From: Bolinopsis microptera
Lineage: Eukaryota; Ctenophora; Tentaculata; Lobata; Bolinopsidae
DNA: 64,000 bases
Reading direction: 5' to 3'
Assembly (NCBI RefSeq): GCF_026151205.1
Contig: NC_087081.1
Location: 248,001-312,000 of the forward strand
This document shows positions 5,546-35,484 of the stretch, piece by piece. The position numbers and the translations under genes are program-made. How positions within the stretch are numbered: the stretch's first letter is position 1; the number at the start of each line of letters is the position of its first letter. The notes below the pieces were generated by a model that worked only from the letters and a program-made list of their open reading frames with translations, was not told the DNA's origin and did no database searches.

Positions 5546-6195
5546 AAATGTTGCTGGCGCTAAACACAACGTAATATCAACTAAACCGATAAAATGCCGT
5601 TCTAACAATTTTTGCACGTGCACGTGCGTGTAACAACCCTCGTTACCATGGTTACTATGCAATCTTTTGCTTTTTACCTAATAATAATATGCACGTGGGC
5701 GGTCGTACATACATTCTACATACGGAAATAATTCTTTGAATTATAATAATGACTAGAAAGCCTGTGGTAACAGGGATGAAGCTAGTAGTAGTAGTATTCT
5801 TTGGTAGTCAGTTTTACTTTTTATCGCATCAAAAAATATCTGTCACAGCCGAAGATACAGCCGATTAACTGCCTAGATTAAAATGTAGCCCGCACTAATA
5901 AGCTAATATAAACACAACGTAATTACTACAAAGCCGATCAAAATCTTAGCACGTGCGCGTTTCAAAACCGTTACCATGGTTACTATATTTTTCACCTAAT
6001 TTGCACGTGGGCGGTCGTACATACAGAAACAATTTTTTGAATTATAAGTAAGACTAGAAAACCCGTGGTCACAGGGAGGAAGCTAATAGTGTTTTTTGTT
6101 AATAAGTTTAAATCGCGTCAAAAAATATCCTACACAACCGAAGATACAGCCAATAAAAATATTGCTCGCACTAAACACTTAACGTAATATCAACA
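5541..6195 (+). repeat. About 310-bp tandem repeat, two copies plus the start of a third
   Basis: Related blocks begin near 5541, 5871 and 6149, each with GATTAAAATG-like then GC..GCACTAA..AACGTAAT. Each full copy holds GCACGTG, a GCACGTGGGCGGTCGTACAT block and a GACTAGAAA-CC-GTGGT-ACAGGGA hairpin-like block. Several CACGTG palindromes (E-box core) fall in these copies. The same array recurs at 10555-11220. Confidence 0.65.
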
Positions 6196-6464
6196 AAACA
6201 GGAGGTGTCGGATTGTGTGGGGTCTTTGTTCAAAAGGGTGTAGCTACCTGATGTCAAGTGATCATTCAATTTATTTATGTATTGTTCGTGGGTTAACAGT
6301 AACACCACAGTGGTGTTGCCCTTATCGGCTGGGAGAAATTTTAATTCTGATTTCTTAGATTTTAATGATTTGAGAGCAGTCCGTTGTTGCAGTACGTTGT
6401 TGGAGTACGTTGTTGGAGTGTAGCACAGTTTACCTACCATACTATAAGTTATATCTTGATGCAA
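6171..6464 (-). pseudogene. Penelope-like RT N-terminal fragment, copy 1
   Basis: The minus strand reads KSELKFLPADKGNTTVV, later HEQYINKLNDHL and YTLLNKDPTQ. The A-D-K-G-x-x-T-V-V then Y...L...Y-x-x-L-x-x-D-P-T arrangement is typical of the N-terminal part of Penelope-like element reverse transcriptases. Only about 90 residues remain, with no RT catalytic core and no GIY-YIG domain. The same fragment is present in the second duplicated unit, so it predates the duplication. Confidence 0.55.
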
Positions 6465-6830
6465 GCTAGTAAGGTATCTTGATGCAAGAAAACTACAGTT
6501 AAATTCTTTTTTGGACTGCCTGATTAAACTTCAACAGTGACAAATTTTATTTTAATTTAAATTTATCACATATCATAGTAACAGACTGAAGTGTAGCACA
6601 GTTTACCTACCATACTATAAGTTATATCTTGATGCAAGCTAGTAAGGTATCTTGATGCAAGCAAACTACAGTGAAATTCTTTTTCGGACTTAAATTTAAA
6701 TTTATCACAGTAGTTTAACTACACTTAAACTATAGTGAAACGGGGGTCACCACGTGATACAATGTATCCTGATACAAGTAAGCAGAAAAAAAAGAATGTT
6801 GAGACCAAATATTTTGAGCACAGCTGTCCT

Positions 6831-6870
6831 TATATAGCTGCTTCACTTCCAGTTCACCAACATTCAGTTC
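6831..6870 (+). promoter_or_regulatory. TATA box and initiator of neuropeptide gene 1
   Basis: TATATA at 6831-6836 is followed by TCAGTT (6864-6869), a fair initiator with the A about 35 bp downstream. The arrangement is conserved at 11680-11718 in the second unit. The start codon lies about 550 bp downstream, so an intron in the 5' UTR is likely. A pyrimidine-rich CCTTTTACCAG near 7260-7272 could be its acceptor. Confidence 0.55.
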
Positions 6871-7421
6871 TCTTTAAGTTGAAGTTCTAATTTGTTTAAG
6901 ACCATAGGACGATATTTCAACGAATCGTTTTTTCATGACTCTCGCCCAGACTGTATCAATTTAAGGCACCCGCTCTCTTCTTGGATTTACGATTATTATC
7001 GTGAAGAAAATTAGAGTCCGGTATCCAACAAATTTTAGATCTTTATTAACATGGTTTTTTAGACACCTAAATATGCCGATTTCCGGGTTTTTTCCAGCGT
7101 TAAATTTTAGCAGCCGGTTGCTTTTTTCCTTTTCTGCTTCAACAATATAATAGAATAGAATATTTTGATCTAACTTTTGAACGACTTCTGATACGACTGA
7201 TTTCTCCTTAGAACACGGTGGTATATTTGCTTTATCAGGGCTTTAACATTCAGTTTTGTTCCTTTTACCAGGTTTCAGTCTCACATAACTCCGCATTTAA
7301 TTTTTTTAAATCTTATTTTTATCTGGTATTGATTGATATTTGTAAAAAACGTTGAACTATTGAAGTATTGTCATATTCGTTTCCTTTTGTTTAAGCCTTA
7401 AAAAACACCAGACCCGCAGCA

Positions 7422-7763
7422 ATGACGAAAGTATTCTGTTTTCTACTAGTGCTAGGACTGATCGCTCTGACTCAGTGTCGGACTCCAATAAGACGATCAG
7501 CTGAACCCCAACAGAACGGTGAACCATTTGTTGATTTTGGAAAACGATCAGCTGAACCCCAGCAGAACGGTGAACCATTTGTTGATTTTGGAAAACGATC
7601 AGCTGAACCCCAGCAGAACGGTGAACCATTTGTTGATTTTGGAAAACGATCAGCTGAACCCCAGCAGAACGGTGAACCATTTGTTGATTTTGGAAAACGA
7701 TCAGCTGAACCCTCAGCAGAGATCGTCGCTGAGCACGCCGCTGAGGCTGCATTCTACGGATAA
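7422..7763 (+). CDS. Amidated neuropeptide precursor, 4-peptide copy
   Basis: A 113-residue secretory precursor. Residues 1-19 (MTKVFCFLLVLGLIALTQC) are a clear signal peptide. After a short R-R spacer come four exact copies of a 17-residue unit, SAEPQQNGEPFVDFGKR. Each is bounded by dibasic K-R, and the Gly before K-R is the usual donor for C-terminal amidation, so the expected product ends in FVDF-NH2. If dipeptidyl aminopeptidase removes Ser-Ala and Glu-Pro, as known for other invertebrate precursors, the mature form would begin with Gln that can cyclise: pGlu-QNGEPFVDF-NH2 (inference). The C-terminal piece SAEPSAEIVAEHAAEAAFYG ends in Gly at the stop and could also be amidated. The overlapping long frames in other phases are by-products of the 51-bp repeat. 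I do not recognise a named family. Confidence 0.9.
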   Translation: MTKVFCFLLVLGLIALTQCRTPIRRSAEPQQNGEPFVDFGKRSAEPQQNGEPFVDFGKRSAEPQQNGEPFVDFGKRSAEPQQNGEPFVDFGKRSAEPSAEIVAEHAAEAAFYG

Positions 7764-7998
7764 GTTCCTCAACCAATCTCCCGGACTGTTACAAGCGCAA
7801 GAGTTGTACAACGGTGTTGTCATGGTGACAACAGTGTTGTTGTCATAACGACGACAATATTGTCATAAAACCGACGACAGCGCTGTCAACTTTTGTTTGT
7901 TTTGGTTTTTACTCCTTTACGGACACGGACATCTCGTAATACCACTATATCGTCGTAGCGTTTCTCGGTAGCTCTTATGTAAAAACTTTAGATGATGG

Positions 7999-8046
7999 TT
8001 CTAGAATGTTCGATAATGTTCTAGAATGTTCGAGAATGTTCTAGAA
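7999..8046. promoter_or_regulatory. Extended heat-shock-element array, copy 1
   Basis: Ten consecutive 5-bp modules alternate TTC and GAA at fixed 5-bp spacing, TTC at 7999 to GAA ending 8046. One module is TAA instead of GAA (8014-8016). Three modules already make a functional HSF site; nine of ten is exceptional. It lies about 235 bp downstream of the neuropeptide stop codon and is repeated at 13421-13468. Confidence 0.75.
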
Positions 8047-8680
8047 CTTCAGTAGATGACAGTGCAGATTGTGCTTGTTGTAGTTTGTAGCTTAATTAGA
8101 CAGTTTGATGTTTTAAACAAGAAAATAATATGTTATGATGTACTGAAGTTCGCCCTGATTTCCCCTGATCTTGCATTAACTTTTAATATATCGCTTTTCA
8201 TTTTGTCTCCTCTAATTTTAAAACAATTCTGTCCAACTGGTTTAAAAAATCAGAATCATAAATTGGTTATTCAAATTTCATGAAATTAGACTGAAAATAA
8301 TTTTTTTCTACAAGACCTCTTAAGTCCTCAATGTGAACTATAATTATAAATACCACAAAACCATTAATAACGGGAGCAATCCCAGGACTTTACCAAAAGT
8401 AACCATGTTGACATCTTCAAAGAAGGTGATGCGCCATTGAAGCATTCCCAAGACTAAAGTTGATGATATTATAACCAAAAGAACTGAACATCTCGTTTTG
8501 AAAAAACGACACGAAATTCAAAATTTTTCGAGTAAGAATTTTGCCCAAAGATAATTCGATTCATGATTTTTTGGGCAAAATTGTTACTTAATTACCTAAA
8601 AATTTCGGGTTTAACCATTGCAGTAATCTAAGTCCTGCTCCTTCTGTTTATTCTACTTCTCCTTTTTCTTCAGCCGATTA

Positions 8681-10554
8681 CAGATACATGGAAGATAGAG
8701 AAGTGTCGACTGTTGCAATCCTATCAAACATCTAAGGATGACCTGATTAAAGCAGTCCAGCCCCAAGTTCGTTCTGGTAGAGTTTGGAGGCCTGAGACAG
8801 AACTGGAAGAGGCCAGAAGAGATTTGGTCTGTGAATCGGTGCGAGGGATGGTGCAACCTCAAAAAAGAGTTGGCATCGGTTTTGGTGACTGGAAAAAACC
8901 TTGGGAGAGGATGGATGAGCGGGAAAGAGAGAGGGAGGTTATGCTGAGAGTGAAGGAGAACATTGAAAGAGAGAGGTAGGTGCAAGTAGGTTCTCTGGAG
9001 ATGCAGAGCAGGTGGGGTGAGTGGAGAGAGCTCGTAATGAAGACGGATTTGAGCTGGCATACACTTAAGTATGGTGACTCACTTATTGGGTTCATGCTAA
9101 GTGCTGTGTACGGCACCCTCTTAACCCCCTCTATGGTTTCCAAGTGGAGTGAAGATGAGGATGGGAAGTGCAAGTTATGTGAGGAGAGGATGGGCACCAT
9201 TCAGCACATTTTGGCTGGGTGTAAGGTGGCCCTTAGTCAAGGAAGGTATAGATGGCGGCACGACAAGGTTCTGAAGCAGATCTCTGAACAGGTTGTCTTC
9301 CATTGTGATCGCCGAGTGAACACTTATAAGAACAAGGCCGGCGATGGAAGGCAGTTCATTGATTTTGTTCCTGCTGGGAAAAGAAAAGCAGGTACAGACG
9401 ACCGGAAGGAGAGTCGTGGTTTTGGGATCCTGAGTGGGTATCGGGATTGGATAGTGATGTCAGACCTTGAGGGGCAGCTTAAGTTTCCCAGTGAGATTGT
9501 GGAAACACGGCTGAGGCCGGACCTTGTGATATTCTCAAGGTCGGCAAAGACAGTTATTTGGTGGGAGCTAACAGTACCATCTGAAGAGCGGATCGCTGAA
9601 TCGCACGAGTACAAGCTCGACCGATACAGCGGTCTGCAGGCTGAGATTCAGGCGAAAGGTTGGTGCTGTTATAATGCCGCAGTCGAAGTTGGAGCTAGGG
9701 GAGTGGTTGCGCAGAGTTTGGAGAGAGCTGCGAGGAGGATTGGTTTTAGGGGAAGAGAGCTGAAGAAGCTGGTACGGGACAGCGGGAAAGAGGCAGCCCA
9801 CTGTTCCAGATGGATTTACTTGTTATCGAGAAAGAGGGAGTGGGAGTTCAGGAAGGTTGGAGCTTGAGAGTTCACTATAACATCTAGAGGTACCATAAAC
9901 GTTATCTCGTCGCCAATTGCGAGCTCTAACGGGTCTCCTCAAGTGACTCTCGGATCAGATGGTGGTTCAAGGGTGGACTGCTGGGGCGCCTGACAGGAAA
10001 CTGTATTGCGATTAAAGCCCCGAAACGGTGTCAGGTTGGTAACTGATGATTCTGATCCATGCTCCTGTGAGTTTGCTGTTGTATCTCAACTCGCTAAACT
10101 GAGGCATCTCCGCATCTTGGGTGAATATGCGTACATCTTCATACTAAACCCAGGTGTGGCATGTGTCAGTGAATACGGGCGAGCGGATGCAATAGCGAAG
10201 GTGGTGTGGCAAGGCCTAAAAGACACAGTCAGATAGTTGTCAGCTCGCTGACTGTAAGGGAGAAGGTATATCCGTATTTCGCTGCTACTGATGCAGTCCT
10301 TGGTCTGGCAATCAAGGCTTCTCTGTTTTTCGTCTAACTATGTACCGTTGGGCTTGTGGAACCCGTAGGGGGGACATACATAGGTTAGAATGGTTTTGTG
10401 CACCAAGAGGAGTGAGGGAATGAGGGTTGAAGAGAGAGAGCTAGAGAGTTGTTAGGGTGGTTAGGATCAGTAGGTGGAGTGTTTGGTTGGAGCGTTCTGT
10501 TTTTGCTGTATAGCATTTTAGTCACTCCGCAGTTTATTAACTGTGTCTCAACCC
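8681..10554 (+). mobile_element. REL-endonuclease LINE fragment inserted between the duplicated units
   Basis: Unit 1 reads CAGCCGATTAAAATGTTGCTGGC at 5536-5557. In the second unit the same sequence is broken at CAGCCGATTA (8671-8680) and resumes at TTGCTGGC (10555). The 1.87 kb between is a 5'-truncated retrotransposon: coding C-terminus to 9867, then about 690 bp of 3' UTR. The target AAATG is missing and no target-site duplication is obvious. Confidence 0.8.
8713..9867 (+). pseudogene. REL-type LINE C-terminus (zinc knuckle plus PD-(D/E)XK endonuclease)
   Basis: One plus frame runs from 8713 to 9867, interrupted by a single in-frame TAG at 8977-8979. The second part has a zinc-binding block CKLCEERMGTIQHILAGC, then GRYRWRHDKVL. 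A restriction-like endonuclease core follows, RPDLVIFS...VIWWELTVPSEE, with catalytic D, E and K-like positions (P-D...E-x-T...E). This order of CCHC then RPD..ELT is characteristic of R2/NeSL-like, site-selective non-LTR retrotransposons. The RT domain is missing through 5' truncation. A related fragment lies at 39549-40229 on the other strand. Confidence 0.75.
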
Positions 10555-11222
10555 TTGCTGGCGCTAAACACAACGTAATATCAACTAAACCGATAAAATG
10601 CCGTTCTAACAATTTTTGCACGTGCACGTGCGTGTAACAACCCTCGTTACCATCGTTACTATGCAATCTTTTGCTTTTTACCTAATAATAATATGCACGT
10701 GGGCGGTCGTACATACATTCTACATACGGAAATAATTCTTTGAATTATAATAATGACTAGAAAGCCTGTGGTAACAGGGATGAAGCTAGTAGTAGTAGTA
10801 TTCTTTGGTAGTCAGTTTTTATCGCATCAAAAAATATCTGTCACAGCCGAAGATACAGCCGATTAACTGCCTAGATTAAAATGTAGCCCGCACTAATAAG
10901 CTAATATAAACACAACGTAATTACTACAAAGCCGATCAAAATCTTTGCACGTGCGCGTTTCAACACCGTTACCATGGTTACTATGCAAATTCTTATTTTT
11001 CACCTAATTTGCACGTGGGCGGTCGTACATACAGAAACAATTTTTTGAATTATAAGTAAGAGACTAGAAAACCCGTGGTCACAGGGAGGAAGCTAATAGT
11101 GTTTTTTGTTAATAAGTTTAAATCGCGTCAAAAAATATCCTACACAACCGAAGATACTCATACAGCCAATAAAAATATTGCTCGCACTAAACACTTAACG
11201 TAATATCAACAAAACAGGAGGT

Positions 11223-11513
11223 CTAGGTGACGGATTGTGTGGGGTCTTTGTTCAAAAGGGTGTAGCTACCTGATGTCAAGTGATCATTAACTTTATTTAT
11301 GTATTGTTCGTGGGTTAACAGTAACACCACAGTGGCGTTGCCCTTATCGGCTGGGAGAAATTTTAATTCAGATTTCTTAGATTTTAATGATTTGAGAGCA
11401 GTCCGTTGTTGCAGTACGTTGTTGGAGTACGTTGTTGGAGTGTAGCACAGTTTACCTACCATACTATAAGTTATATCTTGATGCAAGCTAGTAAGGTATC
11501 TTGATGCAAGCAA
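11223..11513 (-). pseudogene. Penelope-like RT N-terminal fragment, copy 2
   Basis: Nearly the same fragment as at 6171-6464, with ADKGNATVV and YTLLNKDPTQ on the minus strand and a slightly longer N-terminal end. It carries no catalytic core and is part of the duplicated unit. Confidence 0.55.
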
Positions 11514-11679
11514 ACTACAGTGAAATTCTTTTTCGGACTTAAATTTAAATTTATCACAGTAGTTTAACTACACTTAAACTATAGTGAAACGGGGGTCACC
11601 ACGTGATACAATGTATCCTGATACAAGTAAGCAGAAAAAAAGGAATGTTGAGACCAAATATTTTGAGCACAGCTGTCCT

Positions 11680-11718
11680 TATATAGCTGCTTCACTTCCA
11701 GTTCACCAACATTCAGTT
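11680..11718 (+). promoter_or_regulatory. TATA box and initiator of neuropeptide gene 2
   Basis: TATATA at 11680-11685 and TCAGTT at 11713-11718 keep the spacing of the copy-1 promoter, in otherwise nearly identical flanks. Confidence 0.55.
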
Positions 11719-12284
11719 CTCTTTGAGTTGAAGTTCTAATTTGTTTAAGACCATGGGACGATATTTCAACGAATCGTTATTTTTTTCATGACTCTCGCCC
11801 AGACTGTATCAATTTAAGGCACCCGCTCCCTTCTTGGATTTACGATTATTATCGTGAAGAAAATTAGAGTCCGGTATCCAACAAATTTTAGATCTCTATT
11901 AACATGGTTTTTTAGACACCTAAATATGCCGATTTCCGGGTTTTTTCCAGCGTTAAATTTTAGCAGCTGGTTGCTTTTTTCCTTTTCTGCTTCAACAATA
12001 TAAATATAATAGAATAGAATATTTTGATCTAACTTTTGAACGACTTCTGATACGAATGATTTCTCCTTAGAACACGGTGGTATATTTGCTTTATCAGGGC
12101 TTTAACTTTCAGTTTTGTTCCTTTTACCAGGTTTCAGTCTCACGTAACTCCGCATTTAATTTTTTTTAAATCTCATTTTTATCTGATATCGATTGATATT
12201 TGTAAAAAACGTTGAACTATTTAAGTATTGTCATATTCATTACATCCTATTGTTTTAGCCTTAAAAAACACCAGACCCGCAGCA

Positions 12285-13187
12285 ATGACGAAAGTATTCT
12301 GTTTTCTACTAGTGCTAGGACTGATCGCTCTGACTCAGTGTCAGCCTCCAATAAGACGATCAGCTGAACCCCAACAGAACGGTGAACCATTTGTTGATTT
12401 TGGTAAACGATCAGCTGAACCCCAGCAGAACGGTGAACCATTTGTTGATTTTGGAAAACGATCAGCTGAACCCCAGCAGAACGGTGAACCATTTGTTGAT
12501 TTTGGAAAACGATCAGCTGAACCCCAGCAGAACGGTGAACCATTTGTTGATTTTGGAAAACGATCAGCTGAACCCCAGCAGAACGGTGAACCATTTGTTG
12601 ATTTTGGAAAACGATCAGCTGAACCCCAGCAGAACGGTGAACCATTTGTTGATTTTGGAAAACGATCAGCTGAACCCCAGCAGAACGGTGAACCATTTGT
12701 TGATTTTGGAAAACGATCAGCTGAACCCCAGCAGAACGGTGAACCATTTGTTGATTTTGGAAAACGATCAGCTGAACCCCAGCAGAACGGTGAACCATTT
12801 GTTGATTTTGGAAAACGATCAGCTGAACCCCAGCAGAACGGTGAACCATTTGTTGATTTTGGAAAACGATCAGCTGAACCCCAGCAGAACGGTGAACCAT
12901 TTGTTGATTTTGGAAAACGATCAGCTGAACCCCAGCAGAACGGTGAACCATTTGTTGATTTTGGAAAACGATCAGCTGAACCCCAACAGAACGGTGAACC
13001 ATTTGTTGATTTTGGAAAACGATCAGCTGAACCCCAACAGAACGGTGAACCATTTGTTGATTTTGGAAAACGATCAGCTGAACCCCAGCAGAACGGTGAA
13101 CCATTTGTTGATTTTGGAAAACGATCAGCTGAACCCTCAGCAGAGATCGTCGCTGAGCACGCCGCTGAGAGTGCATTCTACGGATAA
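12285..13187 (+). CDS. Amidated neuropeptide precursor, 15-peptide copy
   Basis: A 300-residue paralogue of the precursor at 7422, starting at the same ATG context (AGCAATGACGAAAG). The frame is open further upstream, but the signal peptide and the match to copy 1 place the start at 12285. The signal peptide is identical, then QPPIRR replaces RTPIRR. Fifteen exact copies of SAEPQQNGEPFVDFGKR follow (12357-13121, 51 bp each), so one precursor could yield fifteen identical FVDF-amide peptides. Units differ only at silent sites: CAA for CAG in units 1, 13 and 14, and GGT for GGA in unit 1. The C-terminal peptide SAEPSAEIVAEHAAESAFYG is conserved apart from one Ala to Ser change. Long antisense and frame-shifted ORFs here are repeat artefacts. 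Confidence 0.92.
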   Translation: MTKVFCFLLVLGLIALTQCQPPIRRSAEPQQNGEPFVDFGKRSAEPQQNGEPFVDFGKRSAEPQQNGEPFVDFGKRSAEPQQNGEPFVDFGKRSAEPQQNGEPFVDFGKRSAEPQQNGEPFVDFGKRSAEPQQNGEPFVDFGKRSAEPQQNGEPFVDFGKRSAEPQQNGEPFVDFGKRSAEPQQNGEPFVDFGKRSAEPQQNGEPFVDFGKRSAEPQQNGEPFVDFGKRSAEPQQNGEPFVDFGKRSAEPQQNGEPFVDFGKRSAEPQQNGEPFVDFGKRSAEPSAEIVAEHAAESAFYG

Positions 13188-13420
13188 GTTCCTCAACCAA
13201 TCCCCCGGACTGTTACAAGCACAAGAGTTGTACAACGGTGTTGTCATGGTGACAACAGTGTTGTTGTCATAACGACGACAATATTGTCATAAAACCGACG
13301 ACAGCGCTGTCAACTTTTGTGTGTTTTGGTTTTTACTCCTTTACGGACACGGACATCTCGTAACCACTATATCGTCGTAGCGTTTCTCGGTAGCTCTTAT
13401 GTAAAAACTTTAGATGATGG

Positions 13421-13468
13421 TTCTAGAATGTTCGATAATGTTCTAGAATGTTCGAGAATGTTCTAGAA
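13421..13468. promoter_or_regulatory. Extended heat-shock-element array, copy 2
   Basis: The array is the same ten-module TTC/GAA ladder as at 7999-8046, including the single TAA module. It lies about 235 bp after the neuropeptide-2 stop. Confidence 0.75.
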
Positions 13469-13866
13469 CTTCAGTAGATGACAGTGCAGATTGTGCTTGT
13501 TGTGGTTTGTAGCTTAATTAGACAGTTTGATGTTTTAAACAAGAAAATAATATGTTTTAGAGTTATGATGTACTGAAGTTCGCCCTGATTTCCCCTGATC
13601 TTGCATTAACTTTTAATATATCGCTTTTCATTTTGTCTCCTCTAATTTTAAAACAATTCTGTCCAACTGGTTTAAAAATCAGAATGGGATCAGAATCATA
13701 AATTGGTTATTCAAATTTCATGAAATTAGACTGAAAATAATACCTGGGTACAGGAACACATGGGGAAGCCAGTGGAACATCGTTGGGAATTCTAAGGAAC
13801 ATAACCTTAAAGGTAAGGCTATTTAAGATGTAAAGACTTAATAAATATGGTCTCTATAAAGTGTAC

Positions 13867-14055
13867 CTGGACATTGTTGAGTAGAACAAGCTTCTGTAAC
13901 CACTCCACCCTGATCCCCACCACAATCAGCTCCACCAAGTGCAGGGACAGGATCAGTGCAAGTTCTGGTTTTGTACCGTGTTCCTCCACCACATGTTACT
14001 GTGCACACTGACCAGTCTGTCCACCCGGTCCACCCACCATTAACTAAATCGGTTA
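13867..14055 (-). CDS. TSP1-domain exon (exon 3 of a type II membrane protein gene)
   Basis: A 63-codon exon between acceptor AACAG (14060-14056) and donor CAG|GTACAC (13867/13866), phase 1 on both sides. It encodes a complete thrombospondin type-1 repeat: WTGWTDWSVCTVTCGGGTRY, the paired Trp residues and the C-x-x-T-C-G-G-G motif. The later Cys residues are in TRTC, GADCGG, EAC and QQC, six in all. The Trp residues are candidate C-mannosylation sites and the CTVTCGG Thr an O-fucosylation site by family knowledge. Joined to the upstream TM exon it places the TSP1 domain outside the cell. If the donor is not used, the frame reads ten more residues and stops at 13838. The next exon was not found. 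Confidence 0.8.
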
Positions 14056-14226
14056 CTGTTACAATAATGTAACTGAAATACAACCACTTAATCGGTTACT
14101 GTTACAATAATGTTACTGAAATACAACCACGATTTGGTATGATATGGAAGCATGTATAGTAGGGTGACCTGGAATTAACTGAATTTGTAGACTGATTTTC
14201 GACGAATGTGCTAGATTTAAACTTAC

Positions 14227-16585: not shown

Positions 16586-19466
16586 GGTATATGACACAAG
16601 GGCGGAAGACGCGTGGGCGGAGGTCGCGTAGGCGGAAGACTTGAGGGCGGAGGACGCAAGGGCGGAAGTTTCCTAAAAGGTTGGACACGAGGGCGGAGGT
16701 CGCGAGGGCGGAGGTCGATCCCATGATTTGGGCGGAAGACTCGTAAAACGATCACATGTCCTAAATGCTCGACTGGTAATACTACAAAACCGGAAACATC
16801 ACACAACGTACTTCAAATTGTATAAATTATATAAGTTATATTCAATCAAAGTTATATTCAATCATTTTAGTGGTACTGATTTCGAATTCTTTGTAACTTT
16901 ACAAACAAAATACACAGGGTTATACTTATAGAGAACGCTTAACGGTAATATAAATCACAATGTAATCAATCAATTTTGTCAAACCCGAATAGAATAATAT
17001 CACAATAACATAAACATTTCACATAGCACAACATCATCCTCGTACGAATGGTAGTTCTGAACTATGCTGAAGATTCTTCTATCCTTGTCGCTATTGGCCT
17101 TCCTCCTCTTAGGCTGCTGCTTCTTCAAGCGAATTCGCTAAGGTCTTCTTGTCTGTCGAGGACTGTTCCATCTGGACTAGGAGATTCTGACGTTGTGACT
17201 CAAGTTGTTCGTTTCACTGTGCAATCTTTTCGTGTGAAAACTGTTGATCATATCCCAGAAGCCCTTGTGTCATGTGACTCAAACTATCGAATCGAGTCAC
17301 GTGATACATAACTTCGACTCACGTCATGAATCACCATGGTCATGATCTCATATAACACAACGGTATGTGAGGACATCACAACATCACGAGCGATCTGGGA
17401 TCTGATCTGGCATCTGTAAACTGATCTGGGATATGATCAACTGTTTTCACACGAAGAGATTGCACAGTGAAACGAACAACTTGAGTCACAACGTAGACGA
17501 CTCGAGAGACAACTAGTATATTTAAGACCGATGTTGGGAATAGAAGTATCTTATTATTTAGTTCCAGCTACATCTCAACTACTACAATAACAACCATGTA
17601 CGATGAGGATACAGTAAAGATTATCAGAGGAAGGACTCCTACCAGTCAGAATCTCCTACACGGTGGTTTCCGCTACTCTAAGGATGGAAAGCTTACCACC
17701 GATGGACGCCAAGCCTGGAGATGTGTGAGGAAGAAAGACTGTTGCCGTGGTCGTCTGTATACCCTGAACGAATCCTTGGTGAAAGTGACACAGATACATA
17801 ACCACGACGCTGATATCGCTGACTGTGAATTGAAAGAAGTCCTCGCTAAAGTCCAGGATCTGGCTGCTACGACGATGACTACTAACCACAACATCGTTTG
17901 CTCCGTTACTGGTCCCATGTCTCAGGATGCACGTGCCCGCCTCCCCAACGAACAAGCGGTGAAGAAGAGGGCACAGAGAGCCCGCTGATACGGAAACCCT
18001 AGACCTAGAGCGCCTACATCCCTCGCAACTGGAAGAGGACGACTGCAGATCCCTCTCCGGTGAACCTATGCTTCAATACGACAACAACCTGGACGATCGA
18101 CGTGTCATCATCTTCGCAACAAAAAACAACCTGACAGCCCTAGAGCAGAGCAGCAGCTGGTATATCGACGCAACCTTCTCATCCTCACCGCAGCGGTTCT
18201 ATCAGTTACTGACTGTCCACGCGGAGATGGTGAACTTCACGGAGGATTCAACCTGGTGCTTCCCTTGCGTCTACATTCTCCTGACCCACAAGGACACTCC
18301 CATCTACATGGAAGCGTTCGGCGCCCTCAAAAACCTTGGTTCCTTTTCTCCAGACCGAATCATGGTGGACTTTGAGCTCGCCCTGAGGAACGCCCTATCG
18401 TCTACATTCGAGTCAGCCCAAGTGGATGGGTGCTTCTTTCATATCTGCCAGGCTGTCATGAGAGCTGTCGGGAGGCTTGGATACAAGGAGGAGTATGAAA
18501 AAGTCCTGACAGATCCCTCATCTGGCCAGAAGAACTACACCCCTACACGAATCTGGATACGGAGACTGATGCTCCTAGCCTTTATCCCCACCGAGGACGT
18601 CATCGAAGCGTTTTTCAGAATCCTGGATGATATACCGATAGGCCTCGACATTGACGATCTCCTGGCATACTTCCAGACCACTTGGATCCAGGGACTAACG
18701 ACTGCCTCCGGCACCGGACGAGCTAAATTCCCTCCGTCCACGTGGAATGCCTATGAACGCAGCCACTTCAACATGAACCGGACAAACAACGTGGTGGAGT
18801 CCTGGAACAAGAAGTTCTCTGCTCTAGTCGGACACGCAAACCCGACCATCTACAATTTCATTGCAGCAGTCCAGATGGAACAGTCCTCGACAGACAAGAA
18901 GATCTTAGCGAATTCGCTTGGAGAGCAGCCGCCTAAGAGGAAGAAGGCCAACAGCGACAAGGATAGAAGAAACCTCAGCATAGTTCAGAACTACCATTCG
19001 TACGAGGATGATGTTTTAACCTATATTGATTTGCTAAAGAGTGCTATGTGAAATGTTTATGTTATTGCATGATATTATTCTATTCGGGTTTTGACAAAAT
19101 TGATTGATTACATTGTGATTTATATTACCTTTAAGCGTTCTCTATAACCCTGTGTATTTTGTTTTTAAAGTTACAAAGAATTCGAAATCAGTACCACTAA
19201 AATGATTGAATATAACTTATATAATTTATACAATTTGAAGTACGTTGTGTGATGTTTCAGGTTTTGTAGTATTACCAGTCGAGCATTTAGGACATGTGAT
19301 CGTTTTACGAGACTTCCGCCCAAATCATGGGATCGACCTCCGCCCTCGCGACCTCCGCCCTCGTGTCCAACCTTTTAGGAAACTTCCGCCCTTGCGTCCT
19401 CCGCCCTCAAGTCTTCCGCCTACGCGACCTCCGCCCACGCGTCTTCCGCCCTCCTGACTGGTTCCC
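16586..19466 (+). mobile_element. FLYWCH-MULE DNA transposon, near-complete
   Basis: A 2.88-kb element with ends GGG...CCC and a 9-bp target-site duplication AAAAAATTG (16577-16585 and 19467-19475). The duplication size is typical of Mutator-like elements. Long terminal inverted repeats cover 16586-17178 and 18868-19466. The outer part of each TIR is a cluster of GGCGGAAG/GGCGGAGG motifs. The inner part of the left TIR is an inverted copy of the 3' end of the transposase gene. A second inverted pair (about 17189-17259 and 17429-17499) precedes the gene. The Pro/Arg-rich ORFs in both TIRs are artefacts of the GC-rich motif. Confidence 0.85.
17596..19051 (+). pseudogene. FLYWCH zinc-finger MULE transposase, one frameshift
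   Basis: The ATG at 17596 opens 130 residues with a FLYWCH-type zinc finger: GGFRYSKDG..AWRCVRKKDCCRGRLYT...IHNHD, with the W-R-C, C-x-G-R and H-N-H residues. A one-base shift near 17960-17990 moves the frame to ADTETLDLERLHPS and on through 18068-19051. That part is a MULE DDE domain: first Asp in WYIDATF, second in IMVDFE, then the C-x-x-H of CFFHICQ and Glu in NNVVESW. A TATA-like TATTTAAG lies near 17518. Without the shift the protein would be about 485 residues, a normal length. The element is otherwise well preserved, so loss of function is recent, or the shift is a sequencing error. Confidence 0.85.
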
Positions 19467-20290: not shown

Positions 20291-20692
20291 TACAATGGCA
20301 TGACAGGCTAGGAAGTACAGCCGATCTCCTGGTATGCGGGTGCGCTGGGGTTCCTGAAGTTCGCCTCCTGAGTTAGGCTCCTCTCGCCCAGTGCTTGCAC
20401 TGGGCAACAACACCTTAAACACGATGTAAGTTTCTCTTTTACTTCTTTCTCAATGATAGCTTATTTTGAATGTGAATTTTTACATCTCTGATATTGCCCC
20501 TCTTATCCTTACTCTAGCTATATTTTCACTGGCAAATTTAACTTTACTCCCGACCAGCAGTTTCATTACACATTTTCTCGTGCCATTTTCCTTCCAGGTC
20601 GTGTTTAGTGTTGTGGGAGGTTGCCTACTCTGAGGTGTTACGGATGGTTCCCTGGCAAACTTTGCTGCCAGACTCGACAATCTCTGACAACA

Positions 20693-22063
20693 ATGATAAA
20701 CCTTCAAGAGATTTTCGACTATGTCAAAGCTGCCTCAGTTGAGGATCTACGTCATATCCTTAACTCTGTTCAAAACGAGCTGCCAAAGCGTGAGGGAAAG
20801 GTGGACAATTTTGTGTTACATATAGAGGACTTCTGCGATGATGAGGTTCTCCGTGATGCGGTATGGGTTGAATGTGAGTCCCTGCAGAAACTGAACACCG
20901 AGGGAAGACACAAGGCAACAACAGCTTGGTTGTGCTCACAGGATGCACCCTATATTTACACTGACACAAATCCAGTGCACCCACCACAGGATATCAGTGG
21001 TTTCCCTAATATCAAAAGACTCCTGAGTCTTGTAAACTTGAGTACGGAGATAACTGGACCTCTGGACTCATGTCTGGTCATCAAGTATGGAAACAACCAA
21101 GCGAGTACTTCAATACACAATGACGGTGAGGAACTAATGGACCAGGAGAAATCGATTTGCTCTTTCTCACTGGGATGTGAACGGACGCTTGAGTTTTACG
21201 AGGGCACAACTGGGAAACCTAATTGTGTCAAGACGATAAGGATGAAGAACAACAGTCTTGTTGTAATGCGGCCTGGGACACAGCAGAATCTGAGGCATGC
21301 TGTGCGAGCAGAGCCGGCCACAAAGGGAGAGCCTCTAAAGAAATCGGAGCAAGTAAGATACTCCCTGTCATTTCGAGCTATTGTGAAATCTGGTGGCCAA
21401 GTCAGCTCTCAGAATATCAGCACAGAGACTAGTACACCAGCTTCTGGCACCAAAGCCCAAGTACCTGCGCAAAGAGTCACGTTGGTTGCTGGAGACTCTT
21501 ATGCTCAAAGATTGGACTCCGCAAAGCTGGGAAAAGGGAAAGTCACAGTCGTAAATGTTGCAGAAGGCGGAGCAAAAATGGACAAAGTCCAGAAACAGTT
21601 GGAGGACTACTGCACGGCACATCCTGATGTCCACGTTGAGAAGCTTCTGATCAGCGTAGGCACAAACGATATTAGGCGTGTGGGGGATATTGGTATTTTG
21701 AGGGGACCAGTAAAGCAACTTTTTGGTAAGATAGGCCTATTATTTCCCAACTGTAAGGTATATGTTCAATCTCTATTGCCATAAACTTTACAGAATGATA
21801 ACGATAAATTAACTAACAAGAGGGTAATGGATTTTAATAGGATTTTATACAATGAGTGTGTATTTAGGAGGTTCTTTTTCATGGATGTGTTTTATCCCTT
21901 TACAAAGTTTAAGAGAGCTCTAAGTGAGCCTGTTAAGAGATTTGATCCCTTATTTGAGAACAAAGGCATTCACCCCAATCCTCAGAAAGGTATGGGTGTG
22001 TTGGCCAGATTTTATATTCGTGCCATCCACAGTAGATATTTTAATCCTTATATCTATCAGTAG
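20693..22063 (+). pseudogene. LINE ORF1: AlkB-like 2OG-Fe(II) oxygenase fused to SGNH esterase, one in-frame stop
   Basis: The best start is the ATG at 20693 (MINLQEIFDYVK). An earlier in-frame ATG is at 20621; residue numbers here count from that one. Residues 140-255 carry the AlkB fingerprint: H166-x-D168 in SIHNDGEE, the second His H226 in NLRHAV, and R246/R252 in VRYSLSFRAI for 2-oxoglutarate and substrate. Residues 285-387 begin an SGNH/GDSL hydrolase: nucleophile block VAGDSYAQRL (S293), Gly block EGG and GTND (N349). A TAA at 21782 interrupts the frame. The same frame continues TLQNDNDKLTNKRVMDFN... to the catalytic-His block GIHPNPQKG and ends at 22063. Esterase ORF1s are known in CR1-like LINEs; the oxygenase could repair alkylated RNA or DNA, but that role is inference. 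Confidence 0.8.
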
Positions 22064-22145
22064 TTCTTTTGTGCTGTCTTCTGAACCTTGTTAAGCTAGT
22101 GATATGCAGTTGTAGTCTGGCAAGTATACTCACCTGTAAAACACC

Positions 22146-25100
22146 ATGATCGATTTAGTAACATACAGATTTAGAGTTGGAGTGTTTAGTGGAAATTCTT
22201 TTGCAAAATCCATCAAACATCAGAACCGTAGACGTGGTACAGGTAGTATTTTTGATTATTTAGACAGCTGCATTGATTCTCGCTTATTATTTTATATTTT
22301 TTATGTTATATTTATATGTCACTTTTCGCTAATCACTATCACATATGTCGGGGTAAGTGGGTTGGCTTTTTCTAGGGTCACTTATGAATGCCGAGCCTTT
22401 GTACCAACATACCCAGTTCCTAACTTGTGCCGATGCTTTACAGTTTATTTCTTTTTATATTTAGCAAATATGTATTATCTGAGGAATAATTACAGTTTCG
22501 ATGGTTTATATAGATTTTGCCAGATTTCAATCCATAAGAACTTAAATTGCATATTTACTGGTAGAACCGGCAATACACTCACGGGATGCATAATTTGGTT
22601 GTTTTTGATGAATGGTTTTTTGATAGTTTTAGTAAACCCTGGAATTGTAAACCCAGGGCCGTCTCCCATAGGTGTTAGAGTTGGGAATGGTAATAAATTG
22701 AATGTTTACTTTCAGAATGTTCAAGGTCTCATCCCTTTTGGTGAACTGAACAATGCCCACCCAATGATTGATACCACTAAATGTCTTGAAGTGTCGACTT
22801 ATCTTAATGAGGCTAAGATAGATATTGCAATACTTAACGAAACCTGGTTTAAGAGTTCTATTGCTGATAGTGAATTTCTGCACCCTGACAGATATAAGAT
22901 ATTTCGCTCTGATAGATCGAAGAAAACTCATCCACCAGATCCTTCTAATCCAACCCGGTTTAGGAGGAATGGTGGAGGGGTCATGATTGCAGTGAGAGCA
23001 GACCTTGATCTAACTTCAAAGGAAGTTCGTCTCAAGTATGGTGCAGAAATTCTTGCTGTGGAATTTAAGACCTCCACTGGAATTAAGTTTGTTGTATGCA
23101 CATGTTATCGTGTTGGTACACTGGGCTCCGCAAATCATGAAAAAATTGTTGAGTCTTTGAATTTGAAAACTCTTCTCAGAAGAAGAGGACTGAGTAAAGT
23201 CTTCATACTAGGAGATTTTAACCTGACCGGAGTTTCCTGGTCTACCCTGGCCAGCTCCTGTCCTATTGAGCAATCTTTTGTTGAATCTTTTGTTGATCTA
23301 GGCCTTCAACAATGTGTGTTAACACCTACCCACTGCAAAGGCAAAACACTTGACCTATTGCTCACAAATTCTGTGTCAAATATTAATGACCTAATGGTAG
23401 GTGAGAGAGATAGTGCTTGCAAGTCTGACCACTTCCCCATCAATTTTAAGATCAACGTTAAAGTTGGTAGGAAGAAGCCAGTCAGGCGTATGTGCTATAA
23501 CTTTAAGACTGCGAACTGGGAGAGGCTAAACCATGAACTCCGACACACGAATTGGGATGCATTGCTCAATGGCACAGAACCTGAAATTGGATGGAAAAAA
23601 TTTAAGGACAAACTTTTTAATGTCACAGATAAATTTGTTAAAAAATGCTCTGTCAAGACTGATGGCCAAGATCCATGGTTTGACTCGGAGTGTTATGATG
23701 CATGGCGTAAGAAAGTGAGATTACATAAAGAAAGGCATAAAAGTGATAGAGCTGAAATTGCATTCTCCCTTGCTAGGAAAAATTTCAAAAATGTGGTTGC
23801 TCAAAAAATGAGGGAAACGTTAAATGAATCTGATGATAGTGCTTTAATAACAAAAAAATTTTGGTCCTATGTCAAATCGAAGACAGCTAGTCAGCGGATC
23901 CCTGAGTTTGTAAGCCACAAAGGCACTGTCCGCAACTGCCCTGAAGACCAGGCCAACCTATTTAATGACTTTTTCTTCGAGCAGTTCTCTGAGGCATCAA
24001 CTTATGACATAGATATAGATTACTCTAATGATTGGCGCTTTGATATTGAATTTGACCACAGAAGGGTTCGCAAAATCCTTTCCAATATTAATGCTAATAA
24101 AGCTTATGGACCTGATGGTATCCATGGGAAACTTTTGAAAAACTGTGCGGTTGGGCTCGCATACCCTATATCAATACTTTTTCATTCATGCTACAACATT
24201 GGGACACTACCAAGGGAGTGGAAACTGGGGCACATTGTACCAATATTCAAGAAAGGGGATAAACATGAGGTTTCAAATTATAGGCCAATTTCTCTTACAT
24301 GCTTAATCACAAAAGTTCTTGAACGCATAATAAGAGATGAGTTATTGGCACTTACTAATGGAATGATCAATGACAAACAGCATGGTTTCCGAGCTGAGAG
24401 ATCTTGTGCAACTAATCTTGTAGGACTGTGCGACAGCCTAGCGCTCTCACTGAATGAAAATATGAGAACAGATGTAGTCTACTTTGATTTTGCCAAAGCA
24501 TTTGACTCGGTTAACCATGATCTTATATTATTTAAGCTAAAGAGCAAATTTGGTATTGATGGGAGGCTACTGAAATTCATCACTGATTATCTAAGAGACA
24601 GGCAACAACAGGTCTTGATAAGTGGCAAGTTTTCTTCTATAAGAAACGCCCAGTCTGGTGTACCACAAGGGTCAATTTTGGGACCATTGCTGTTCATTAT
24701 GTTCATTGATGATATATCAGTGGGGATTTCACCAGGCACACAACTGTCACTGTATGCCGATGATACTAAAATTTGGCGTAAGATTGTTTCGGAGTCTGAT
24801 ATCCTGCGACTGCAGAAGGACATTGATTATCTCCATGACTGGTCACTTTCTAATAAAATGAGATTTCATCCCGACAAATGTAAGGTCCTCACCGTCGCAG
24901 GAAGGATATCCGAAACAGTTTCCCTCCTTAGTGTCCTACCACTCTTTAACTTTGTATACTCCATGGGAAGAATCACACTTGACTATGTTGATCATGAAAA
25001 GGATCTGGGTGTAATTGTGACATCAAATCTCGATTGGAAAGATCAGTGCTCCAAAGTCCTTTCTAAGGCAAACCAAAAATTAGGCATGGCGAGAAGAAAT

Positions 25101-25682
25101 TGTTATTTTGTCCAAGACGTAAATCGCCGTAGAGTACTGTATCTCACTTTAGTGAGGAGCCTATTTGAGCATTGCTCGGTTATATGGAGACCAGTCACAA
25201 AATCCCAGATAAGCAAGCTGGAGGGCCTCCAAAAGCGTGCTATTAAGTGGATTCTTCACGAGGAGTATATGAGTTATCCACCATCCACATACATTCAAAA
25301 ATGCAGACAGCTGAAGATTATGCCGATTGAAGACCGCTTTGACTTCTTGGATCTCATCTTCTTCTTTAAAATTGTGAAGCAACATATACCTGTCACTTTA
25401 CCCTCATATTTGCAACCATTTCAAGGCCACTCAAGGCTCAGAAATAGTCACATGGACTCTCTATGTTTTGTAAGCTCTATCTCACCTCGAGCTAGCTCCA
25501 ACGCTTTTGCCAAGAATTTCTTCTATAGGACCCACACTAAGTGGAATCACATTCCTCTAGATATCCGTGAGATAGAGAGTATCACTGATTTTAAAAGTAA
25601 ACTTTCCACTTACATGTGGGGGAAAATTATCCCGGTGGATTCGGACTGTGAACTTGACTATTCAATAGAAACAAATCCGTAA
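22146..25682 (+). CDS. LINE ORF2: EEP endonuclease and reverse transcriptase
   Basis: An intact frame of 1178 codons. Residues about 1-170 are unusually hydrophobic, with several Phe/Tyr/Ile-rich stretches, and the start codon is uncertain within them. The EEP endonuclease follows: YFQNVQGL, ILNETW, NGGGVMIAV, GDFN (about 355) and KSDHFPINF (about 426). The RT shows YGPDGIHG, FKKGDKHEVSNYRPISL, YFDFAKAFDSVNHD (about 780), SGVPQGSILGPLLF and the catalytic YADDTK (about 870). All core residues are present, so the enzyme could be active. There is no RNase H domain, as usual for CR1-like elements. It lies 82 bp downstream of ORF1. Confidence 0.92.
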   Translation: MIDLVTYRFRVGVFSGNSFAKSIKHQNRRRGTGSIFDYLDSCIDSRLLFYIFYVIFICHFSLITITYVGVSGLAFSRVTYECRAFVPTYPVPNLCRCFTVYFFLYLANMYYLRNNYSFDGLYRFCQISIHKNLNCIFTGRTGNTLTGCIIWLFLMNGFLIVLVNPGIVNPGPSPIGVRVGNGNKLNVYFQNVQGLIPFGELNNAHPMIDTTKCLEVSTYLNEAKIDIAILNETWFKSSIADSEFLHPDRYKIFRSDRSKKTHPPDPSNPTRFRRNGGGVMIAVRADLDLTSKEVRLKYGAEILAVEFKTSTGIKFVVCTCYRVGTLGSANHEKIVESLNLKTLLRRRGLSKVFILGDFNLTGVSWSTLASSCPIEQSFVESFVDLGLQQCVLTPTHCKGKTLDLLLTNSVSNINDLMVGERDSACKSDHFPINFKINVKVGRKKPVRRMCYNFKTANWERLNHELRHTNWDALLNGTEPEIGWKKFKDKLFNVTDKFVKKCSVKTDGQDPWFDSECYDAWRKKVRLHKERHKSDRAEIAFSLARKNFKNVVAQKMRETLNESDDSALITKKFWSYVKSKTASQRIPEFVSHKGTVRNCPEDQANLFNDFFFEQFSEASTYDIDIDYSNDWRFDIEFDHRRVRKILSNINANKAYGPDGIHGKLLKNCAVGLAYPISILFHSCYNIGTLPREWKLGHIVPIFKKGDKHEVSNYRPISLTCLITKVLERIIRDELLALTNGMINDKQHGFRAERSCATNLVGLCDSLALSLNENMRTDVVYFDFAKAFDSVNHDLILFKLKSKFGIDGRLLKFITDYLRDRQQQVLISGKFSSIRNAQSGVPQGSILGPLLFIMFIDDISVGISPGTQLSLYADDTKIWRKIVSESDILRLQKDIDYLHDWSLSNKMRFHPDKCKVLTVAGRISETVSLLSVLPLFNFVYSMGRITLDYVDHEKDLGVIVTSNLDWKDQCSKVLSKANQKLGMARRNCYFVQDVNRRRVLYLTLVRSLFEHCSVIWRPVTKSQISKLEGLQKRAIKWILHEEYMSYPPSTYIQKCRQLKIMPIEDRFDFLDLIFFFKIVKQHIPVTLPSYLQPFQGHSRLRNSHMDSLCFVSSISPRASSNAFAKNFFYRTHTKWNHIPLDIREIESITDFKSKLSTYMWGKIIPVDSDCELDYSIETNP

Positions 25683-34979: not shown

Positions 34980-35484
34980 CTAAATTGGCGTTTCTGCGAC
35001 GATATCCTCGTTTGCTCTTACTTGCGATGCTCCCTCTATTTGATCTCCCATTTCTACAGCAGTAACTTGCAATCTTAAACAAGTAGCGCCTCTTAAACAT
35101 CTAGCAGCAAAATTTCTGAAAGCTTCACCAAACAACTCTCTGAGAGTGTTATCATATAGCAAAGGGTTGATGACCGAATTGAGGGGTAAAACTATCATAG
35201 TGAAGGTGACGTACCAATCTGTAGCGTCGATTGTTTTGAGATTGTGGAGCCCACTGATTATCATAAATGGAACCCAACAGGCGAAATCTGTGGCCTGTGC
35301 CCTGTATTGCTCGGTTTCTGCGGACAGCATCTGGATTGCTGTTTTGCCCAGAATTCCTGGATGATCGTTCTAGATATAATGTTGATCATCAAATAGGACA
35401 CGGTTATCACCACAAAGCAGAAAAGGTTGACGCCCAACATAAGCCAAACTATCATATTTCCTTTCACGTCGATCATTTCCGTTT
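34980..35484 (-). pseudogene. LGR-like class A GPCR fragment (TM5-TM7)
   Basis: An acceptor at 35486-35485 starts an exon reading GNMIVWLMLGVNLFCFVVIT, a TM5 helix, then ISRTIIQEFWAKQQ. The frame must shift before TDFACWVPFMIISGLHN (TM6) and PLNSVINPLLYD (TM7 with N-P-x-x-Y), followed by a cytoplasmic helix and tail ending at 34980. The T-D-F-x-C-W-x-P and N-x-x-x-N-P-x-L-Y pattern resembles leucine-rich-repeat receptors of the relaxin/glycoprotein-hormone type. TM1-4 and any LRR ectodomain are absent from the flanking DNA seen. Either a frameshifted relic or two exons with an unrecognised small intron. Confidence 0.55.

What the first reader, a model, noticed from the sequence alone, without database searches (positions are those of the whole stretch)
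7422..13187. Two paralogous precursors of an FVDF-amide neuropeptide, possibly an undescribed peptide family
Both genes have a clean signal peptide, exact 17-residue units with G-K-R amidation/cleavage sites, and TATA promoters. The Ser-Ala-Glu-Pro start of each unit suits stepwise dipeptidyl aminopeptidase trimming to an N-terminal Gln (pyroglutamate). The predicted product, pGlu-QNGEPFVDF-NH2, has an acidic D-F-amide end that I cannot match to a known family.
Basis: partly seen in the sequence, partly recalled or inferred. Interest (0 to 1): 0.82.

Follow-up and report, generated by a model that had tools for sequence, protein, structure and literature searches.

The report
Comb-jelly amidated-peptide precursor gene family
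Two neighbouring comb-jelly genes encode many identical copies of a short peptide predicted to be secreted, and they belong to a scattered family whose members keep the same secretion signal but carry very different peptides, some ending like the gut hormone cholecystokinin.

Summary
Window 7422-7763 and 12285-13187 (+) encode a signal-peptide-like leader and then 4 and 15 identical 17-residue units, SAEP-QQNGEPFVDF-G-KR; the genes lie in a 2.8-3.2 kb segmental duplication. The genome is a ctenophore's: a photoprotein matches berovin/mnemiopsin and no Hox-like homeodomain was seen; Bolinopsis is inferred. The leader is nearly invariant, silent sites included. The mature parts differ: FVDF, PGL, SDY, LNI, PSM, GMGV, SAW and SFQ, each before an amidation glycine. 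Some members place the same peptide (QPPGL-G-RR) directly after the leader and also after SAEP, which supports SAEP as a removable spacer and Gln as the mature N-terminus: pGlu-QNGEPFVDF-NH2. The end resembles cholecystokinin/caerulein, but membership is not supported: the Pfam gastrin hit vanishes for a single unit. I found no report of it in the open papers searched. Neuropeptide or exocrine arsenal is open; no expression data were available.

The parts
7422..7763 (+). W1: precursor gene, 113 aa, leader + RTPIRR + 4 units + tail
7422..7478 (+). W1 signal peptide MTKVFCFLLVLGLIALTQC
   Evidence: read by eye; 14 of 19 codons invariant at DNA level in 18 loci
7497..7700 (+). W1 4 units SAEPQQNGEPFVDFGKR (51 bp each)
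7701..7760 (+). W1 tail SAEPSAEIVAEHAAEAAFYG
12285..13187 (+). W2: precursor gene, 300 aa, leader + QPPIRR + 15 units + tail
12285..12341 (+). W2 signal peptide
   Evidence: read by eye
12360..13124 (+). W2 15 units SAEPQQNGEPFVDFGKR
13125..13184 (+). W2 tail SAEPSAEIVAEHAAESAFYG
7372..7478 (+). W1 universal leader block (about -50 to +57), the only 5' stretch shared by both flank classes of the family; has a T-rich tract and CAG just before CAATG, a possible cis- or trans-splice acceptor (inference)
12235..12341 (+). W2 universal leader block
6762..7024 (+). distal 5' flank of W1, part of a repeat with copies elsewhere without the gene; one such copy carries a sub-cut-off reverse-transcriptase match (Penelope-like by recalled motif)
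5551..8301 (+). first copy of the segmental duplication (96-97% identical in the three long aligned pieces)
10555..13741 (+). second copy of the segmental duplication

Best explanation
These genes are prepropeptide genes of a ctenophore. The product enters the secretory pathway through the shared leader, which is cut after Cys19. Prohormone convertases cut after K-R/R-R, and the basic residues are trimmed. The exposed Gly is turned into a C-terminal amide by peptidylglycine alpha-amidating monooxygenase. Dipeptidyl peptidase removes Ser-Ala and then Glu-Pro, and the new N-terminal Gln cyclises. The result is 4 (W1) or 15 (W2) copies of pGlu-Gln-Asn-Gly-Glu-Pro-Phe-Val-Asp-Phe-NH2, released as an extracellular messenger, most likely a neuropeptide-type signal acting on a G-protein-coupled receptor. 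Shown: gene structure, identical units, cleavage and amidation motifs, family-wide reuse of the Q-start/G-end frame, and PHM-like and DPPIV-like exons in the genome. Inferred: every processing step (the signal-peptidase site included), release, and the receptor.
For: Two intact ORFs with leader, identical units and G-KR. In L012, L014, L015 and L018 the leader is followed directly by QPPGLG-RR, and the same QPPGLG-RR recurs behind SAEP or SAEL in L012, L014 and L018, so SAEP looks dispensable and Q the mature start. In 10 loci with alignable units, Ser-Ala, Asn-Gly, Asp, Gly and the final Arg are invariant while other positions change. FVDF or FLDF before Gly lies in the leader's own ORF in 10 of the 18 open loci (W1, W2, L009, L010, L013, L015, L018, L021, L022, L023); L012 and L014 carry FVDF units further down in another frame. 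PHM-like exons on C4, 3 matches over cut-off, two of them with stops inside; DPPIV_N-like on C2 and C11, 4 matches over cut-off, one with stops inside. Published: ctenophore PAM genes, N-terminal pyroglutamate, basic and acidic cleavage sites in Bolinopsis mikado peptides (PMC9525235, passages).
Against: No transcript, peptide or receptor evidence was available. The main-text passages of the B. mikado mass-spectrometry paper name 10 of its 13 precursors and none is FVDFa, although 15 copies in one gene should make the peptide easy to see; its supplements could not be read. Rapid change of the amidated C-terminus among close paralogues is unusual for neuropeptides. The substitution test in arrays gave no clear coding signal: in eight arrays 12 of 34 changes were synonymous in the reading frame against 13 of 34 in one antisense frame; in two broken arrays 9 of 25 in the reading frame against 4-6 of 25 in the other five. 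SAEL and SADS spacers (L018, L023) fit dipeptidyl-peptidase trimming poorly.
Confidence: 0.5

Rival explanations
1. Exocrine peptide arsenal: the same processing, but the peptides are made in gland or tentacle cells and released outward for defence or prey capture. The conserved leader, 5' block and 3' flank act as an expression cassette; the mature part changes quickly, as in frog skin secretions.
For: Leader pN 0.010 / pS 0.035 against unit pN 0.097 / pS 0.053 in the same 10 loci. Several unrelated amidated C-termini among 13 of 18 loci whose 3' flanks are still related, about 78-99.7% in aligned pieces. The frog case has purifying selection on signal peptide and cleavage sites, tandem peptide exons with near-zero divergence, and a CCK-like member (PMC3731216, passages). 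Ctenophore tentacle and colloblast gene sets are enriched in signal peptides, and one tentacle gene resembles a pore-forming toxin (PMC6278862, passages). Part of the 5' flank also lies upstream of tectonin-domain genes.
Against: No expression data. The pN/pS contrast rests on few sites and was not significance-tested. FVDF/FLDF is retained in the leader ORF of 10 of 18 open loci, as a receptor-bound signal would be. The predicted FVDF peptides are acidic, not the usual cationic antimicrobial type (knowledge). PMC6278862 found no significant overlap of its gene sets with toxin-database domains (passage). Tectonin genes may share the flank only because a repeat was duplicated with them.
Confidence: 0.33
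2. True member of the cholecystokinin/gastrin/sulfakinin family outside Bilateria.
For: C-terminal F-V-D-F-amide against W-M-D-F-amide; 10 residues with pGlu-Gln at the start, like caerulein (both known sequences recalled, not from a call). Pfam Gastrin PF00918 scores 31.7 and 90.6 bits, over its 22.2 cut-off.
Against: The Pfam hit covers 9 of 127 profile positions with no stretch passing alone, and disappears for one unit or for leader + one unit + tail. No tyrosine for sulphation. Paralogues carry SDY, LNI or PGL instead. [quoted passage not shown]
Confidence: 0.03
3. Mostly non-functional: minisatellite-like arrays and transposon-linked duplicates of a once useful gene, little expressed.
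For: Broken or leader-less copies L011, L016, L017, L030, L031, L032; the large FVDF arrays of L012 (48 units) and L014 (22 units) are out of frame with their leaders; mobile-element flanks; no clear coding signal in the array substitution test.
Against: 18 of 20 leaders are open, with 14 of 19 codons identical at DNA level across the 18; Q-start and G-[K/R]-R frame kept through peptide change; W1 and W2 are intact.
Confidence: 0.1

Closest known systems
Multi-copy amidated neuropeptide precursors of ctenophores (Bolinopsis mikado: VWYa, NPWa, FGLa, RWFa, WTGa, NVFa/NIFa, TFQa, LNSa, PARa; PMC9525235, passages)
   Same: Signal peptide, basic cleavage sites, Gly amide donor, pyroglutamate as a feature of mature peptides.
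   Different: None of the ten precursor names seen in the main text is FVDFa; the words paralog- and duplicat- do not occur in its main text. The TFQa name resembles the QSFQ-G-RR units of the leader-less array L032, a possible link I could not test because supplements were closed.
Cholecystokinin/gastrin/sulfakinin
   Same: D-F-amide end after an aromatic and an aliphatic residue.
   Different: No W-M, no sulphatable Tyr, multi-copy array, different motifs in paralogues; Pfam hit is repeat-inflated.
Pipid frog skin peptide arsenal, including caerulein (PMC3731216, passages)
   Same: Conserved signal peptide and cleavage sites, tandem near-identical peptide units, several unrelated peptides in one gene lineage, a CCK-like end in one of them.
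   Different: Different phylum, no shared ancestry shown, uninterrupted ORF after the leader rather than separate peptide exons, dispersed over 8 contigs, no evidence of gland expression.
Conotoxin-type families (recalled)
   Same: Hyperconserved leader with changing mature part.
   Different: No cysteine framework seen in the predicted peptides; short linear amidated peptides, in some members in identical tandem copies.

Membership tests
Secreted multi-copy amidated peptide precursor | N-terminal signal peptide | tested here: inconclusive
   By eye: K near the start, hydrophobic core, polar end, in the 18 open loci; no predictor available
Secreted multi-copy amidated peptide precursor | Repeated units bounded by dibasic sites with preceding Gly | tested here: met
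   W1 4 of 4, W2 15 of 15; 15 of 18 open loci have at least one internal G-[K/R]-R in the leader ORF; L024, L026 and L029 do not
Secreted multi-copy amidated peptide precursor | Processing enzymes in the genome | tested here: met
   PHM-like, 3 matches over cut-off; DPPIV_N-like, 4 matches over cut-off; convertase and glutaminyl cyclase not tested
Neuropeptide | Expression in neurons; released peptide; receptor | not testable with these tools
   No transcriptome, peptidome or assay
CCK/gastrin/sulfakinin | Family profile match independent of repeat number | tested here: not met
   0 families up to E 10 for one unit or for leader + one unit + tail
CCK/gastrin/sulfakinin | Sulphatable Tyr before the W-M-D-F or M-R-F core (recalled) | tested here: not met
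   No Tyr in QQNGEPFVDF
CCK/gastrin/sulfakinin | Orthologous CCK-type receptor | not tested
   No receptor search was run
Frog-skin-like peptide arsenal (works like) | Conserved leader, diversified mature peptides | tested here: met
   the pN/pS contrast itself is a trend without a significance test
Frog-skin-like peptide arsenal (works like) | Exocrine gland expression and biological activity | not testable with these tools
   No expression or activity data

The most novel reading that the evidence does not exclude
A ctenophore evolved, independently of vertebrates and cone snails, a leader-cassette peptide arsenal: one nearly frozen 107-bp leader block heads a scattered set of genes whose amidated peptides are replaced quickly, and one of them has converged on the cholecystokinin/caerulein D-F-amide end.
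Probability: 0.3. Interest if true: 0.8.

Novelty: new variant of a known kind. Interest (0 to 1): 0.62.

Why it matters
Ctenophores are candidates for the sister group of all other animals, and their peptide signalling is used to argue for one or several origins of nervous systems. A large family of amidated-peptide genes, if confirmed, would widen that repertoire, show how new peptides arise (fixed leader, fixed cleavage frame, interchangeable core), and give a clear test of whether a D-F-amide signal outside Bilateria is homologous to or convergent with cholecystokinin. It is directly testable by peptidomics, because each precursor predicts exact masses.

Tried and rejected
CCK homology: rejected as an effect of repeat number. 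Cnidarian origin, my first guess: rejected because none of the 19 homeodomain matches exceeds 55% identity and a photoprotein matches berovin and mnemiopsin. GFP search in the genome: nothing, and nothing in 14 controls, so uninformative. Selection test on array units: mixed, no clear coding signal. Relatives in viral contigs: 5 stretches matched a pattern, none confirmed. More family members: two further protein searches gave no new leader locus. Rfam on the window: 0 matches. TATA promoter claim: not supported. L015 as a third 5'-flank class: dropped on re-check, because its family flank lies about 0.9 kb further up. A structure prediction was not run; a short linear peptide precursor would tell little. 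Other ctenophore genomes are not held here, so phylogenetic depth is unknown. Resemblance of QPPGF in L023, L024 and L029 to bradykinin's PPGF is recalled, four residues long, and was not pursued. A Nematostella receptor paper (PMC11087051, passages) holds no DFamide, FVDF or DYamide.
Full report
THE OBSERVATION. W1 (7422-7763, 113 aa) reads MTKVFCFLLVLGLIALTQC-RTPIRR-[SAEPQQNGEPFVDFGKR]x4-SAEPSAEIVAEHAAEAAFYG. W2 (12285-13187, 300 aa) reads the same leader, QPPIRR, 15 units, and the same tail with one change. Tandem Repeats Finder finds both 51-bp arrays without being told. The two genes sit in a segmental duplication, window about 5551-8301 and 10555-13741, 96-97% identical in the three long aligned pieces, with retroelement remnants between (a zf-RVT match of 24.7 bits, below the 27.5 cut-off).

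WHICH ANIMAL. The window is G000:C10:248001-312000 of a 264.65-Mb assembly in 232 contigs. An Antennapedia homeodomain probe finds 19 matches, none above 55% identity, so no Hox-type gene as in cnidarians or bilaterians was seen (the search runs exon by exon). An aequorin probe finds 55 matches, many in tandem; the one I tested matches berovin at 355 bits and mnemiopsin 1 at 351 bits over 174 residues, against 69 bits for obelin. All 20 leader copies lie on contigs numbered 13 or lower; the contig lengths I saw, for 11 of C1-C13, are 15-26 Mb. Bolinopsis microptera has 13 chromosome-scale scaffolds and a k-mer genome size of about 254 Mb (PMC10232365, passages). I conclude ctenophore with high confidence and Bolinopsis by inference.

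THE FAMILY. The W1 protein gives 60 matches in the genome, many of them overlapping pieces of one array. The 91-nt leader region gives 20 copies at 87-100% identity, on C1, C2, C5, C7, C10, C11, C12 and C13. I read the leader of all 20: 18 are open, and L030 and L031 are frame-broken. Four more loci have units or arrays without a leader: L011, L016, L017 and L032; a further leader-less piece lies about 2.9 kb upstream of the L009 leader. Two further protein searches found no additional leader locus. The tool says its counts are lower bounds.

WHAT VARIES AND WHAT DOES NOT. Across the 18 open leaders, 14 of 19 codons are identical at DNA level. Mean synonymous difference in the leader is 0.040 against a p-distance of 0.215 for the flank at -300 to -40 (136 of 153 pairs; 17 pairs dropped for having under 150 aligned columns). 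That flank figure is inflated, because in the stretches aligned L015, L018, L023 and L029 are not homologous to the rest there. The stretch shared by all runs from about -50 to +57. L018, L023 and L029 share a different upstream flank. L015 matches the rest for only about 60 bp, but its family flank lies about 0.9 kb further up (C2:19810526-19810966), so it looks like an insertion. The block has a T-rich tract and CAG before ATG, so it may be the end of an intron or outron plus the leader exon (inference). After the first stop codon, 13 of 18 loci have related 3' flanks; W1 and W2 match only each other, L024 has one 45-bp match, L012 matches only through its array and L014 has none. The peptide region changes. 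By a rule that splits at dibasic sites, drops the spacer and turns Gly into amide, the open loci predict EPFVDF, EEFVDF, KPFLDF, PPGL, PPGS, PDPGL, GGAYSDY, DLNLLNI, TPFM, PDPSM, LHGMGV and KSAW amides among others, and the leader-less L032 array would give QSFQ amide. In the 10 loci with alignable 17-codon units, unit pN is 0.097 and pS 0.053, while the same loci have leader pN 0.010 and pS 0.035. This is a trend on few sites, not a tested result.

PROCESSING. The best evidence on the N-terminus comes from paralogues. In L012, L014, L015 and L018 the leader ends ...ALTQC and the next residues are QPPGLG-RR. In L012, L014 and L018 the same QPPGLG-RR recurs behind RSAEP or RSAEL. One peptide is thus framed once by the presumed signal-peptidase cut and once by the spacer, so the mature peptide should begin at Gln. 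Ser-Ala and Glu-Pro are classic dipeptidyl-peptidase-IV pairs (general knowledge), and DPPIV_N-like exons are present (4 matches, one with stops inside), as are PHM-like exons of the amidating enzyme (3 matches, two with stops inside). The SAEL of L018 and SADS of L023 fit less well. Pyroglutamate and amidation are reported for ctenophore peptides (PMC9525235, passages). The predicted product of W1 and W2 is pGlu-QNGEPFVDF-NH2.

CCK RESEMBLANCE. Pfam reports Gastrin PF00918 for W1 (31.7 bits) and W2 (90.6 bits), but over 9 of 127 profile positions and with no stretch passing alone. One unit, or leader + one unit + tail, gives no family at all. There is no tyrosine, and paralogues carry other motifs. 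[quoted passage not shown] I treat the D-F-amide end as convergence. It is built like an amidated peptide of that shape; it is not shown to be a CCK, and no receptor search was run.

FUNCTION. I put neuropeptide-type signalling at 0.5 and an exocrine arsenal at 0.33. For signalling: FVDF or FLDF before Gly is kept in the leader ORF of 10 of 18 open loci, and the sequence hallmarks of peptide prohormones are there. For an arsenal: the leader is nearly frozen while amidated ends change among close paralogues, and frog skin genes show the same pattern, including a CCK-like member (PMC3731216, passages). The largest arrays, 48 FVDF units at L012 and 22 at L014, lie out of frame with their leaders, so they do not count for either. 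Against strong claims of translation, the substitution test was mixed: in eight arrays (W1, W2, L009, L011, L012, L013, L014, L018; L010 and L015 left out) 12 of 34 changes were synonymous in the reading frame and 13 of 34 in one antisense frame; in two broken arrays 9 of 25 in the reading frame and 4-6 of 25 in the other five.

MOBILE DNA. The distal 5' flank (window 6762-7024) belongs to a repeat found at many other places (47 matches to the 659-bp query, 40 of 77 candidates scored). Six copies without a leader were fetched (L038-L043) and share a longer element; one carries an ORF with RdRP and RVT matches below cut-off (19.7 and 17.7 bits). I call it Penelope-like only by recalled motif. 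The stretch 7061-7246 is also found about 1.0-1.3 kb upstream of tectonin-domain ORFs in L034. Whether this flank drives expression is unknown.

LITERATURE. Full-text searches for FVDFamide, VDFamide, FVDFG, GEPFVDF and PFVDF (3 papers, unrelated by title), for six unit and leader strings (1 paper, unrelated by title), and for FVDFa and ctenophore peptide names (4 papers, none with FVDFa) found no paper on this peptide. Subscription papers and all supplements were not readable; of the 2021 Mnemiopsis neuropeptide paper I saw only its reference entry. 'Undescribed' holds only for the open text searched.

Noticed in passing
G000, e.g. C1:21999412-22006929, C5:17012730-17026401, C13:11082451-11094340: Ctenophore photoprotein genes in long tandem arrays; 55 matches to an aequorin probe, one tested against the PDB.
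   Followed up: partly
window 7998-8046 and 13420-13468: Heat-shock-element-like alternating GAA/TTC runs downstream of each gene, within the duplicated segment (seen).
   Followed up: no
window 6171-6718, 6762-7024 and L038-L043: Pieces of a repeat element (Penelope-like by recalled motif) form the distal 5' flank of many family members.
   Followed up: partly
L033 1550-2224; L034 2043-2357, 2361-2717 and 5573-6034: Tectonin-domain ORFs (174 bits for L033 and 99.8 bits for L034 5573-6034; the others by eye), part of the same 5' flank upstream in L034.
   Followed up: partly
L032 (G000:C10:12021000-12023400): Family array of SADLQSFQGRRGKR-type units whose leader is missing; possible link to the TFQa peptide named for B. 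mikado.
   Followed up: partly
window 22140-25682 and 42864-45746: Open LINE-type reverse transcriptase ORFs of 1180 and 960 aa (RVT_1 103 and 130.6 bits).
   Followed up: partly
window 17963-19051: MULE transposase domain ORF, 362 aa (42.3 bits).
   Followed up: no
window 20609-21784: ORF with a 2OG-Fe(II) oxygenase match (60.8 bits) and a sub-cut-off GDSL lipase match; a reverse-strand ORF of L037 looks similar by eye.
   Followed up: no
window 26699-28550 and 29213-30939: Two large arrays of a roughly 184-195 bp repeat, apparently in opposite orientation.
   Followed up: no
window 60599-61860 and 56640-57882: 42-bp array (30 copies, 98%) and 21/77-bp array.
   Followed up: no
window 34980-35369 (-): C-terminal part of a rhodopsin-type GPCR; Pfam 7tm_1 20.9 bits, below cut-off; best PDB match relaxin receptor 1, E 8.9e-05.
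   Followed up: partly
window 13838-14095 (-): Thrombospondin type 1 domain ORF (40 bits) just downstream of W2.
   Followed up: no
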